Positions 37,631 to 41,603 of a DNA stretch of 64,000 bases are shown here, in pieces (position 1 is the stretch's first letter; each line of letters opens with the position of its first letter). The stretch comes from Odoribacter splanchnicus DSM 20712 (lineage in GTDB: Bacteria > Bacteroidota > Bacteroidia > Bacteroidales > Marinifilaceae), in contig NC_015160.1 of NCBI RefSeq assembly GCF_000190535.1, positions 3,348,001-3,412,000 on the forward strand. Reading direction: 5' to 3'. The translations under genes and the position numbers were made by a program. A model generated the notes under the pieces. The model was not told the origin of the DNA and did not search any database. It worked only from the letters and a program-made list of their open reading frames with translations.

Positions 37631-37999
37631 TTATTTCATAAATACAAAATATACGGCCATTACCAGACATACTCCCGCTGCCAGGTGATTCCATTTTAAT
37701 GTTTCTCCCTGAAAAAAGATCATCGTGAAAATGGCAAAAATGATAAGGGTAATCACTTCCTGGATCACTTTCAGCTGAACAAGTGTAAACGGTCCGCCAT
37801 TGCCTTGAAAACCGATACGGTTGCCTGGGATTTGGAGCGAATACTCGAAAAAAGCCATTCCCCACGATATCAGGATAACACCGATGAGCGGCCAGTTGTT
37901 GATCACTTTCATCTCTTGCAACTTTAAATGTCCGTACCACGCAAAAGTCATAAAGATGTTCGAACAAACCAGTAATAAGACGGTATATAACCCTTTCAT
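37631..37999 (-). CDS. DUF486 / DMT-superfamily small membrane protein
   Basis: A 122-residue protein with four transmembrane helices and the DUF486 pattern: FMTFAWYGHLK near residue 17, VILISWGMAFFEYSLQIPGNRIG near 41-63, and LKVIQEVITLIIF near 76. DUF486 belongs to the drug/metabolite transporter superfamily, but no substrate is established. The gene starts opposite the ATPase gene at 38195 with 195 bp between their starts. Its end lies 8 bp from the histidine-kinase remnant. Confidence 0.88.
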   Translation of the reverse strand: MKGLYTVLLLVCSNIFMTFAWYGHLKLQEMKVINNWPLIGVILISWGMAFFEYSLQIPGNRIGFQGNGGPFTLVQLKVIQEVITLIIFAIFTMIFFQGETLKWNHLAAGVCLVMAVYFVFMK

Positions 38000-38194: not shown

Positions 38195-39034
38195 ATGTCG
38201 AATACGGTTCATAGTATCGAAATCCGGAATCTCTGGAAGAAATACGATTTTTTTTGGGAGAATCTCAATCCCGATGTGAATATATTGATTGGAATCAATG
38301 GAAGCGGTAAGACGACCTTATTCAATATCATCGATTCCATCATGATGGCTGATGTAAAACGATTGAGAATTTACGGTGTCGGGGTAAAGATTACCATCGA
38401 CGATTATACCGTCGATTTCCAACAGAAAATGACTGCAGGAGAGTTGAAAACTGCATTGAGAAACGTAAAATATCAAAAAATCAGTACTTTCGACGTTCCG
38501 TTCCGGGACCGGCCGAAAGCCGGTAAAGAGTATAGCCAGTTATATAACGAGCTGCATACTATTGTATACGATATCGGCGGGTCCAATCCTTCTTTCTCGG
38601 ATTATCGGTTGAAAGCGACTAATTTCCCTGAAGAAGCCGGCCGGATTAATCAACGCATCAAAACACTTTTTGAGACGGTCGACCGGCTTTTTGCCAAAAC
38701 ACAGAAGACCATTCAAATCGATCCGCATACCAATCATCTGATCTTTATCGACGATGGAGAAGTGATACCGCTTTACAAACTATCATCCGGGGAAAAGCAG
38801 TTGTTGCTGATTCTGATGCGTGTATTCCTGATGGAAGAACAGCCTTACATCCTCTTGATGGACGAACCTGAAATATCTTTACACATTGAATGGCAATATA
38901 AATTATTCGAAGAAATCCGCCATCTGAATCCCAATTGTCAGATCATCACTTCCACCCATTCTCCCAGCCTGTTCGGCGATGGTTGGGGAGATAAGCTGGT
39001 ATTTGTGGAAGACTTGATAAAGGTAAAAAGCTAA
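38195..39034 (+). CDS. ABC-like AAA ATPase (AriA-like candidate)
   Basis: A 279-residue ATPase of the AAA15/OLD-like group. Walker A GINGSGKTT begins at residue 33. The ABC-type signature KLSSGEKQLLLIL lies near 197, Walker B ILLMDEPE has D223-E224, and a switch histidine is in STHSPSLF near 255. There is no transmembrane segment, so it is not a transporter domain with its own permease. I use the ATG at 38195; the frame from 38150 adds a hydrophobic stretch. The downstream DUF4435 TOPRIM protein makes this an ATPase-TOPRIM pair like PARIS (AriA-AriB). A housekeeping DNA-repair role is the alternative. The stop codon lies within a heptamer array. Confidence 0.8.
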   Translation: MSNTVHSIEIRNLWKKYDFFWENLNPDVNILIGINGSGKTTLFNIIDSIMMADVKRLRIYGVGVKITIDDYTVDFQQKMTAGELKTALRNVKYQKISTFDVPFRDRPKAGKEYSQLYNELHTIVYDIGGSNPSFSDYRLKATNFPEEAGRINQRIKTLFETVDRLFAKTQKTIQIDPHTNHLIFIDDGEVIPLYKLSSGEKQLLLILMRVFLMEEQPYILLMDEPEISLHIEWQYKLFEEIRHLNPNCQIITSTHSPSLFGDGWGDKLVFVEDLIKVKS

Positions 39035-39067
39035 AAGCCAGAGGCTATAAGCGATAAGCTAAAGGGT
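39026..39067. repeat. heptamer array upstream of the four-helix-bundle gene
   Basis: Six 7-bp units (AAAAGCT, AAAAGCC, AGAGGCT, ATAAGCG, ATAAGCT, AAAGGGT). The first two overlap the last codons and stop of the ATPase gene. Same family as the array at 35027-35134 and inverted relative to 39464-39512. Confidence 0.75.
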
Positions 39068-39089
39068 GGAAAGTTAAAGTAGAGAAGAT

Positions 39090-39455
39090 ATGATACCGTT
39101 ATTAAAAGATAAAAGTTATTCTTTTGCTGTTGAAATTGTACGCCTGGTTCAGTACTTACAGCAGGAAAAGAAGGAGTATGTGCTAAGTAAACAAATTTTG
39201 AAAAGTGGTACGTCTATCGGGGCATTGATTCATGAAGCCGTTTTTGCTCAAAGTGATTCGGATTATTTAAATAAGTTGGCAGTGAGCTTAAAAGAAGCGA
39301 ATGAAACGTTGTATTGGTTGAATTTATTACGGGATACCGATTATATTCATATTGATTTATATGAAAAATTAGCTGAAATTGTTAAAGAATTAATAGCACT
39401 TTTAGCTTCGTGTGTAAAAACTTTGAATAACAGACTAAAGTCAAAAAATAGTTAA
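39090..39455 (+). CDS. four-helix-bundle protein (23S rRNA intervening-sequence family)
   Basis: A 121-residue all-alpha protein of the family named after ORFs in 23S rRNA intervening sequences. Recognisable are the first helix SYSFAVEIVRLVQYL, the conserved LSKQILKSGTSIGALIHEA stretch near residue 37, and SLKEANETLYWLNLL near 71. The family's biochemical role is not established. It sits between the ATPase and DUF4435 genes, bounded on both sides by heptamer arrays in opposite orientation, which looks like a later insertion into a two-gene unit. It has the operon's orientation. Confidence 0.85.
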   Translation: MIPLLKDKSYSFAVEIVRLVQYLQQEKKEYVLSKQILKSGTSIGALIHEAVFAQSDSDYLNKLAVSLKEANETLYWLNLLRDTDYIHIDLYEKLAEIVKELIALLASCVKTLNNRLKSKNS

Positions 39456-39463
39456 TAGTACTC

Positions 39464-39512
39464 AGCCTATAGCTCTTTGCTTTTAGCTTTTAGCCTATAG
39501 CTTTTTGCTTAT
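39464..39512. repeat. heptamer array downstream of the four-helix-bundle gene (inverted)
   Basis: Seven 7-bp units (AGCCTAT, AGCTCTT, TGCTTTT, AGCTTTT, AGCCTAT, AGCTTTT, TGCTTAT). The reverse complements AAAAGCT and ATAGGCT match units of the left array at 39026-39067. It starts 9 bp after the stop codon. Confidence 0.75.
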
Positions 39513-39537
39513 TTTTTAACTTTTTACTTTATATTTT

Positions 39538-40512
39538 ATGTTTGGTGCTCGTGCTGAGAATCCCTCTCGTGCTTCGCATTTTGCTAATGCGGCACGGCGT
39601 TTTGCTCTGGATGCGAAAATGTTTCGCTGTAGGGCGGCTGTACATGTTGAAAACAAAGACGATATTGCTTTCTGGGGAGCTGTACTGAAACATTTCCGGC
39701 CGGACGATAAGTTTCACTTCATTTCCGGTTCACGGAACGAATATGGACGGGAGACTTGTGGAGTTACCCAATGTTTGAAATATTTTGATTTCCTGAGTCC
39801 CGATTTCTTCATTTGTATCGACAGCGACTATCGTTATTTGTTGAGGGAAAGAAAGATTGATGTCAAACATTTCGTGCTTCAAACTTACACCTACTCTTTT
39901 GAAAACCACCACTGCTTTGCCGATGGCCTCGACGATGTGTGCAGCAGAGTCACCCACTTAAAAAATACGGTATTCGATTTCCGTCGGTTTCTGAGTGACT
40001 TTTCAGCCATCCTGTACGATCTTTTCATATGGCATCTTTACTTTCAGAATGCCGATCCCGTGCTTTTCAGCCAGTTCGAATTCGATGCTTACATCAGCTT
40101 GTCCAATTCCAAAGCTTTTCCTTTGGTATACGACAACGGGGCCCGGGCGTTGGATGAACTACGGATGAGAGTCGAAAGAAAAATCAATTACCTCGGACGT
40201 AAATATCCCCATGCCGATCTGGCTATTGTTCGTGAAAAATACCGCGAATTGGGATTAAAACCCGATAACGTGTATTTCTTTATTCGCGGTCACAACCTGT
40301 ACGATTTGATTTCGATCGTATGTAAAGAAGTTTGTAAGGCTATGCTGCGCACAGCGAAGAAAAACAAAGTTGTCACCCACGATATGGTCAGTGAGTTGTA
40401 TCGCAGACGTAACAATCTCGACTACGAATTGCGACAGAACATAAAATACGGAGCTTATTTCCCGATCCGTAAACTAGAGCAGGATATTCGGGAGTTTTTG
40501 GGAGAAAATTGA
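39538..40512 (+). CDS. DUF4435 TOPRIM-like protein (AriB-like candidate)
   Basis: A 324-residue DUF4435 protein. The TOPRIM pattern is visible as acidic E38 in VHVENKDDIAFW and the D95-S96-D97 triplet in FFICIDSDYRYLL, the residues that hold metal in TOPRIM nucleases. The rest is helical, with FRRFLSDFSAILYDLF near residue 142. DUF4435 is the AriB effector of the PARIS phage-defence system, where it pairs with an AAA15 ATPase, and such an ATPase lies upstream here. The pairing is seen; the defence function is inferred. It ends 62 bp before ruvB, which has its own promoter. Confidence 0.78.
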   Translation: MFGARAENPSRASHFANAARRFALDAKMFRCRAAVHVENKDDIAFWGAVLKHFRPDDKFHFISGSRNEYGRETCGVTQCLKYFDFLSPDFFICIDSDYRYLLRERKIDVKHFVLQTYTYSFENHHCFADGLDDVCSRVTHLKNTVFDFRRFLSDFSAILYDLFIWHLYFQNADPVLFSQFEFDAYISLSNSKAFPLVYDNGARALDELRMRVERKINYLGRKYPHADLAIVREKYRELGLKPDNVYFFIRGHNLYDLISIVCKEVCKAMLRTAKKNKVVTHDMVSELYRRRNNLDYELRQNIKYGAYFPIRKLEQDIREFLGEN

Positions 40513-40574: not shown

Positions 40575-41603
40575 ATGAGTGAATTCGATATAAGAAACAC
40601 CGATTTAAAAGAAACCGAAAAAGAGTTCGAGAGGGCTTTAAGGCCGTTGAATTTCGGCGATTTCCAAGGTCAGAAAAAGATTGTCGAGAATCTCGAAATC
40701 TTCGTGCGGGCTGCAAAGATGAGGGGCGAATCGCTGGACCATGTCATCCTTCACGGGCCTCCCGGACTGGGGAAAACGACTTTATCCGCCATTATTGCCA
40801 ACGAATTGGGGGTAGGCATCAAAATTACTTCCGGACCGGTACTCGATAAACCCGGAGATTTAGCCGGACTATTGACCAACCTGGAAGAGAACGACGTGCT
40901 CTTCATCGATGAAATACATCGTTTGAGTCCTGTGGTCGAAGAATACCTGTATTCTGCTATGGAAGACTACCGCATCGATATTATGATCGATAAAGGACCT
41001 GCAGCCCGTTCGGTACAGATACAAATCAATCCGTTTACCTTGATCGGCGCTACTACCCGTAGTGGGTTACTGACCGCTCCCTTGCGGGCTCGGTTCGGTA
41101 TTAATTGCCATCTGGAATATTACGATACCGACATCCTTTCCGGAATCATTTCCCGTTCTGCCGCTATCCTGAATGTGGGGATTACCGGTCAGGCTGCTAT
41201 GGAAATCGCTTCCCGGAGCCGGGGTACACCCCGTATCGCCAATGCATTGCTGCGCAGAGTGCGCGATTTTGCAATGGTCAAAGGTAATGGAAGCATCGAT
41301 CGTGACATCACCCGTTATGCACTCGAAGCATTGAATATCGATAAATACGGGCTGGATGAAATGGACAATAAAATCCTGCTCACCATTATTGAAAAATTTA
41401 AGGGAGGACCGGTGGGCCTGACGACGATTGCTACTGCTGTCGGCGAAGATGCCGGTACCCTGGAAGAAGTGTATGAGCCCTTCCTGATCAAAGAAGGGTT
41501 TATCAAGCGTACTCCGCGCGGTAGGGAAGTGACCGACTTGGCTTATAAACATTTGGGGAAAACCCGTAGAAATGACGGTGGGGAACAAATGACGCTTTTT
41601 TAA
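40575..41603 (+). CDS. ruvB: Holliday junction branch migration helicase RuvB
   Basis: ATPase motor that drives branch migration of Holliday junctions with RuvA. The 342-residue protein has Walker [12 protein letters not shown] near residue 60, Walker [11 protein letters not shown] near 112, the sensor segment [18 protein letters not shown] near 156 and the C-terminal winged-helix domain (about 265-335, ending [16 protein letters not shown]). All core motifs are present. The gene is followed by 195 bp with short direct repeats before rprX. Confidence 0.96.

What the first reader, a model, noticed from the sequence alone, without database searches (positions are those of the whole stretch)
38195..40512. 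Possible PARIS-like ATPase plus DUF4435 TOPRIM pair
Seen: an AAA15/OLD-like ATPase with intact Walker A (residue 33), ABC signature and Walker B (D223-E224), followed by a DUF4435 protein with TOPRIM acidic residues (E38, D95, D97), in the same direction. Known: PARIS defence consists of AriA (AAA15 ATPase) and AriB (DUF4435 TOPRIM). Inference: this could be a compact, Bacteroidales-type relative. It is unusual in carrying a third gene between the two and in sitting in core genome beside ruvB rather than in an island. The ATPase is only 279 residues, which may be shorter than classical AriA.
Basis: partly seen in the sequence, partly recalled or inferred. Interest (0 to 1): 0.7.

Follow-up and report, generated by a model that had tools for sequence, protein, structure and literature searches.

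The report
Core-genome PARIS-type ATPase–nuclease pair
An Odoribacter chromosome carries a compact relative of the PARIS anti-phage gene pair that almost every sampled genome of its own lineage, and of what is likely the Bacteroides family, also keeps, so it is likely a built-in switch predicted to stop growth by cutting RNA rather than a borrowed, mobile defence.

Summary
The ATPase (38195-39034) is a compact AriA and the DUF4435 protein (39538-40512) an AriB, by PADLOC profiles (2e-98, 7e-87) and predicted fold (solved PARIS chains rank first for both). The named motifs are intact.

Two things change the picture. First, the pair is not sporadic in its lineage. It occurs in 24 of 25 genomes of eight genera (the one miss has a contig end at the site) and in 0 of 31 genomes of the family's nine other genera. 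In another family, very likely that of Bacteroides, 78 of 81 genomes carry AriB, 74 with an adjacent AriA. It evolves like a core gene.

Second, the third gene is not part of the system. It is a 23S-IVP-type insertion, absent from the seven congeners, flanked by inverted short-repeat arrays. That signature recurs at 54 of 70 such genes across the order, against 13 of 198 gap-matched control genes.

Best reading: a core-genome PARIS-type growth-arrest module. Defence role and tRNA target are inferred; the core retention leaves housekeeping open. New variant of a known kind.

The parts
38195..39034 (+). compact AriA: ABC/AAA ATPase, 279 aa, predicted sensor and keeper of AriB
39538..40512 (+). 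AriB: DUF4435 TOPRIM nuclease, 324 aa; acidic residues E38, D95, D97
39090..39455 (+). inserted 23S-IVP/four-helix-bundle (S23-type) gene, 121 aa; not part of the AriAB pair
   Evidence: PF05635 2.3e-23, TIGR02436 2e-27; no match in the 23 other family loci searched with it
39025..39068 (+). left short-repeat array of the insertion (44 nt)
   Evidence: 75% complementary to 39463-39506; pairs with it in the RNA fold of 39000-39545, z -2.6, 0 of 100 shuffles
39463..39506 (+). right short-repeat array, reverse complement of the left one
37631..37999 (-). divergent DMT_6 (DUF486) transporter gene, the usual upstream neighbour
   Evidence: PF04342 2.2e-43; near AriA in 18 of 24 family copies, window included
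40575..41603 (+). ruvB, the downstream neighbour in Odoribacter and three sister genera
   Evidence: beside AriB in 13 of 24 family copies, window included

Best explanation
This is a compact AriA-AriB (PARIS-type) pair, kept as core chromosomal genes, in which the ATPase AriA is predicted to hold the TOPRIM nuclease AriB inactive until a trigger, likely a phage protein, would release it to cut RNA and stop growth. Shown here: family membership by profile and fold, intact motifs, a co-directional AriA-then-AriB order in all family and f60 genomes that hold both genes, and clade-wide retention that fits vertical descent. Inferred from the characterised E. coli system: sequestration by AriA, release and dimerisation of AriB, tRNA as target, translation arrest. 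Untested: the trigger, and whether the benefit is phage defence. The compact AriA lacks the stretch corresponding to about residues 62-271 of E. coli AriA, so trigger recognition and oligomeric form likely differ. The gene between the two is a separate IVP-type element that likely inserted into the operon in the window's species or its near kin.
Against: Near-universal retention in whole clades is unusual for a defence system and fits housekeeping equally well. AriA, the sensor in PARIS, is the better conserved partner (59-91% vs 51-80% identity to the window's copy across the family), not what an arms race at the sensor would predict. About 200 residues of E. coli AriA are missing. AriB has no sequence-level match to PDB AriB; its fold match is moderate (Foldseek 7.8e-4). 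Elsewhere in the order the cassette is not strict: of 18 loci fetched, 14 hold an adjacent same-strand pair, one (L170) has the two genes on opposite strands with others between, two (L167, L169) have AriB and no AriA match, and one (L162) has AriB at a contig end without AriA. No activity, trigger or target was tested. Six genomes of genus g7 (64-84% complete) and one 96%-complete f60 genome (G793) lack it, so it is likely dispensable.
Confidence: 0.6

Rival explanations
1. A domesticated housekeeping pair: an AriAB-derived ATPase-regulated RNase that was recruited to normal physiology (for example tRNA turnover or a stress-induced translation brake) and no longer serves phage defence.
For: Present in 24 of 25 genomes of eight genera and 78 of 81 genomes of f60, with partly shared neighbours, AriA evolving at the pace of nearby core genes. 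Divergent second copies are sporadic: 2 of 56 family genomes and 4 of 81 f60 genomes. A precedent for an OLD-family ATPase with a cell-cycle role is listed (PMC12796447, start of abstract only).
Against: The nuclease and ATPase motifs are as in defence members. The pair is missing from whole related genera (31 genomes) and from most of the order sample, which is odd for an essential housekeeping function.
Confidence: 0.28
2. A classical mobile PARIS system recently captured next to ruvB by this strain.
For: PARIS is known from phage satellites and hotspots (PMC9122126 passages). Sporadic divergent copies exist beside glycan genes (L103, L104).
Against: Same neighbours and broadly similar trees across genera; only four remote plasmid hits (23-31% identity), at least one of which lies among chromosomal-looking genes; no AriB match in phages or viral contigs.
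Confidence: 0.04
3. A three-gene system in which the middle four-helix-bundle gene is a functional regulator or adaptor of the pair.
Against: The 23 other family loci carry no such gene, and in all seven congeners the two genes lie 3-55 nt apart. The family has two other copies elsewhere in the genome and is scattered at other loci with its own flanking arrays in 54 of 70 cases.
Confidence: 0.05

Closest known systems
PARIS (AriA + AriB) of E. coli B185, structures 8ux9 and 8v45-8v49
   Same: ABC ATPase plus DUF4435/TOPRIM nuclease, co-directional; best profile (AriA) and fold (both) matches; same ATPase motifs and a TOPRIM acidic triad
   Different: AriA 279 aa instead of 464, lacking about residues 62-271; low sequence identity in the structure alignments (AriA 25-26%, AriB 8-11%); core and apparently vertically inherited instead of satellite-borne; trigger and target unknown. 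That 8ux9/8v45-8v49 are of the B185 system is recalled
PADLOC AriA PDLC04164 / AriB PDLC04165 models
   Same: full-length matches (AriA profile 4-252 of 253, AriB 5-285 of 289), so the compact form is already modelled as PARIS
   Different: the models label defence genes; they say nothing of clade-wide fixation, and no test of the compact form turned up in my searches
OLD / Gabija / Septu-retron PtuA ATPases
   Same: same ATPase superfamily; TOPRIM domain shared with OLD
23S rRNA intervening sequences with S23/IVP ORF (Coxiella, Leptospira)
   Same: same protein family (PF05635); borders complementary and able to form a stem around the ORF
   Different: here the element lies between protein genes, with copy-specific arrays of mostly 7-8 nt units instead of one 28-bp stem; excision not tested

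Membership tests
PARIS (detection rule of PMC9122126) | AAA_15 (>=32 bits) or AAA_21 (>=27 bits) ATPase | tested here: met
   83.7 and 85.5 bits; rule read
PARIS (detection rule of PMC9122126) | DUF4435 protein (>=27 bits) | tested here: met
   87.5 bits
PARIS (detection rule of PMC9122126) | the two genes form a cassette | tested here: met
   same strand, AriA first, in 24 of 24 family copies and 74 of 74 f60 genomes with both; in the window one inserted gene lies between them; elsewhere in the order 14 of 18 loci
PARIS (PADLOC models) | best-scoring models are AriA and AriB | tested here: met
   2.2e-98 and 6.6e-87
PARIS (structure) | AriA and AriB folds | tested here: met
   PARIS chains rank first for both models
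PARIS (catalysis) | intact Walker motifs and TOPRIM acidic residues | tested here: met
   that E38 equals E. coli AriB E26 is inferred, no residue-level alignment to AriB was made
PARIS (function) | anti-restriction-triggered release of AriB, tRNA cleavage, growth arrest | not testable with these tools
   described for E. coli in PMC11455837 (whole text) and PMC12409363 (passages and introduction)
E. coli-type PARIS with long AriA | long stretch between Walker A region and signature (E. coli AriA about 62-271) | tested here: not met
   profile positions 4-61 and 111-271 align to chain residues 5-61 and 272-439; so it is not of this subtype
23S rRNA intervening sequence (middle element) | IVP/S23 ORF bordered by complementary sequences | tested here: met
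23S rRNA intervening sequence (middle element) | inserted in the 23S rRNA gene | tested here: not met
   lies between ariA and ariB; so it is IVP-like, not a 23S intervening sequence
23S rRNA intervening sequence (middle element) | excised from RNA by RNase III | not testable with these tools
   described for Coxiella in PMC4990558 (passages)

The most novel reading that the evidence does not exclude
A PARIS-type toxin-like tRNase and its ATPase keeper have been taken into the core genome of major gut Bacteroidales lineages, perhaps more than once, and now act as a permanent, vertically inherited translation switch, either as core immunity or as a domesticated regulator. Separately, IVP genes across Bacteroidales define a class of operon-inserting elements whose copy-specific inverted repeat arrays fold into RNA stems that would be cut out of mRNAs by RNase III.
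Probability: 0.35. Interest if true: 0.8.

Novelty: new variant of a known kind. Interest (0 to 1): 0.58.

Why it matters
[quoted passage not shown] A compact form that is near-fixed in whole gut lineages makes it directly testable, in genetically tractable commensals, whether a suicidal RNase switch can become core machinery and what keeps it there. The intervening element, if its pattern holds, points to a little-described class of small inserted elements in a dominant gut order.

Tried and rejected
Rejected: (1) the third gene as a system component. (2) A truncated AriA: compact length is the rule in 15 of 17 copies read (the two others are 376 aa, an ORF that starts far upstream, and 326 aa, an accessory copy). 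(3) Loss of the pair in G012: its contig ends inside the neighbouring gene at the site, so its absence is undecided. (4) dN/dS ratios: pS is saturated in most comparisons, so only pN was used. (5) The first flank analysis took minus-strand hits on the wrong strand; it is superseded. (6) The phylum search with AriA at E<=1e-20 (4 of 345) is too strict for distant forms and shows only that close forms are rare. (7) Direct PDB sequence search with AriB found nothing relevant. (8) Literature: searches listed no paper that by title or abstract start deals with a core-genome PARIS or DUF4435 pair in Bacteroidales, and none on arrays around IVP genes in Bacteroidales; the library holds open-licence papers only and the listings are capped. 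The two Nature papers on PARIS are not held.

That f60 is the family of Bacteroides is inferred from a named B. finegoldii record whose AriB is 76% identical to one f60 copy and whose meaB gives matches of up to 89% in f60 loci. Neighbourhoods in f60 are only partly shared: of 30 f60 loci with about 1.5 kb flanks, 18 show at least one of the three B. finegoldii neighbours (transporter 12, meaB 6, channel 6), 12 show none. The species name O. splanchnicus is recalled from the genome size; the genus follows from relatives. Of the IVP loci, 3 are the genome's own, 30 were the best-scoring ones and 40 were picked by hand from the listed places, not at random; 16 of 70 do not show the flank signature. 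Trees are quick ones with many open branches; the AriB tree used every second one of the 30 f60 loci and holds one genome (G311) twice. IVP presence in near relatives rests on equal longest-contig lengths only.

Full report
What is there. The window is bases 3,348,001-3,412,000 of a 4,392,288-base, one-contig genome whose named relatives are mostly Odoribacter. On the plus strand lie an ATPase gene 38195-39034, a small gene 39090-39455, a DUF4435 gene 39538-40512 and ruvB 40575-41603.

How it differs from the studied PARIS. E. coli AriA has 464 residues. The profile alignment covers its residues 5-61 and 272-439 and skips the stretch between; the compact protein has about 50 residues in that place. 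Compact length (244-288 aa) holds in 15 of 17 copies read. Residues 93-115 are well conserved in the AriA alignment (mean 0.88) although the model is least sure at 100-104: a candidate contact loop, by inference.

Distribution in the family. AriB was found in 24 of 56 genomes: 8 of 8 of the window's genus (window included), 6 of 6, 1 of 2, 3 of 3, 1 of 1, 1 of 1, 2 of 2 and 2 of 2 in seven other genera, and 0 of 31 in the nine remaining genera. The single miss inside a positive genus, G012, has a contig that ends inside the flanking transporter gene, so it is undecided. AriA precedes AriB on the same strand in all 24 (one AriA is cut by a contig start). The transporter gene lies near AriA in 18 of 24. 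ruvB lies next to AriB in 13; one copy ends at a contig end and the other ten have ruvB elsewhere. Quick trees of ruvB, AriA and AriB give broadly similar groupings, with many weakly supported forks and a differing place for genus g15. Genus g7, in which all six incomplete genomes lack the pair, falls with pair-carrying genera in the ruvB tree (four of the six are in it), which suggests a loss.

Distribution in the order. AriB relatives at E<=1e-3 occur in 29 of 344 evenly drawn genomes, so the pair is not universal. Of 18 such loci fetched outside the family, 14 hold an adjacent same-strand AriA-AriB pair. One (L170) has the two on opposite strands with other genes between, two of one genus (L167, L169) have AriB with no AriA match, and one (L162) has AriB at a contig end without AriA. 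In genus g75 the pair follows a DUF218 gene and an enoyl-reductase-like gene in 3 of 3 genomes.

Family f60. Searching it with its own copy gave AriB at E<=1e-10 in 78 of 81 genomes and 28 of 30 genera (59 of 60 high-quality genomes) and AriA at E<=1e-25 in 74 of 81. In all 74 the two are adjacent, same strand, with a median gap of about 26 bases between matches. Four genomes of one genus have only a divergent AriB; of the three without AriB, two are 56% and 77% complete and one, G793, is 96% complete. A named Bacteroides finegoldii record shows DMT transporter, AAA ATPase and DUF4435 in this order beside meaB; its AriB is 76% identical to an f60 copy, so f60 is very likely the family of Bacteroides. 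A Phocaeicola record has the same three genes. Both are filed as plasmids; the former carries chromosomal-looking genes. Neighbours in f60 are only partly shared: 18 of 30 loci show at least one of three B. finegoldii neighbours. A quick tree of 57 AriB proteins puts the 24 family copies, and the 20 f60 copies, each on one side of a branch (support 77 and 81), and two sporadic second copies elsewhere. The AriB query found no match in phage records, and a pattern-based scan of viral contigs none; four remote plasmid matches exist.

Rates. Against the nearest relative, nonsynonymous difference is 0.054 for AriA and 0.122 for AriB, against 0.030 for the transporter, 0.035 for ruvB, 0.073 for the neighbouring histidine kinase, 0.007 for its response regulator and 0.036 for rpiB, with synonymous sites at or near saturation. 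AriA thus lies within the range of its core neighbours; AriB lies above all of them here. In the four other comparisons AriB is slightly to clearly above the kinase, and in one of them (G043) the transporter is faster still. Both are under purifying selection.

Mechanism. In E. coli PARIS, AriA forms a hexamer that holds up to three AriB; phage anti-restriction proteins such as Ocr release AriB, which dimerises and cleaves tRNA, stopping growth (PMC11455837 whole text; PMC12409363 passages and introduction). I infer the same logic here because both partners, their order and the catalytic motifs are kept. What is not shown: interaction, activity, trigger, target. The core pattern argues for either core immunity or a domesticated role; I favour a growth-arrest module of PARIS type and leave the physiological trigger open.

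The third gene. It belongs to PF05635/TIGR02436. The 23 other family loci lack it, and in all seven congeners the pair is 3-55 bases apart against 503 in the window. It is bordered by 44-base arrays that are 75% complementary and pair in the predicted RNA, with folding energy below all 100 shuffles (z -2.6). The other two PF05635 genes of the genome, one a 67-aa fragment, have arrays of other units around them. In the order, 147 of 198 genomes have PF05635 matches. Of 73 loci taken, 70 were usable; 54 have complementary flanks at a score of 16 or more and 16 do not, against 5 of 114 genes in the same loci, 32 of 1050 in other loci and 13 of 198 genes with comparable gaps. Pairing one gene's upstream flank with another gene's downstream flank reaches that score in 8.6% of cases, so arrays match mainly within a copy; the unit length is 7, 8 or 14 in 37 of 44 arms measured. 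Both neighbours run in the gene's direction in 51 of 66 cases against 233 of 498 controls. Coxiella's 23S intervening sequence has the same protein family, complementary borders, RNase III excision and heptamer repeats before its ORF (PMC4990558 passages). I infer an IVP-like element that inserts into operons; movement and excision are untested.

Verdict. The surprise is the clade-wide core retention, plus an intervening element of a recurrent and, in my searches, undescribed kind.

Noticed in passing
window 39025-39506; L028 about 1320-1915; L030 about 1393-1755; 70 loci: PF05635 (IVP) genes across Bacteroidales are flanked by inverted arrays of short repeats whose unit differs from copy to copy (54 of 70), and they sit mostly between co-directional genes (51 of 66).
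   Followed up: partly
L103 (G008) and L104 (G045): Sporadic, divergent second AriA-AriB copies lie beside glycosyltransferase or polysaccharide genes, unlike the core copy.
   Followed up: partly
L241 (NZ_OY725943.1) and L242 (OY726067.1): Two Bacteroidaceae records filed as plasmids carry transporter, AriA and AriB; the first also holds meaB and other chromosomal-looking genes and may be a chromosome piece.
   Followed up: partly
AriA residues 93-115 (window 38471-38539): A highly conserved stretch that the structure model places with its lowest confidence; a candidate contact loop with AriB or the trigger.
   Followed up: no
f60 genus g368 (G742, G769, G791, G810): Four genomes of one genus have a divergent AriB (35-36% identity) and no AriA at the threshold used.
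   Followed up: no
L167 and L169 (genus g129); L170: AriB relatives without an adjacent AriA match, or with AriA on the opposite strand: the nuclease may have other partners.
   Followed up: no
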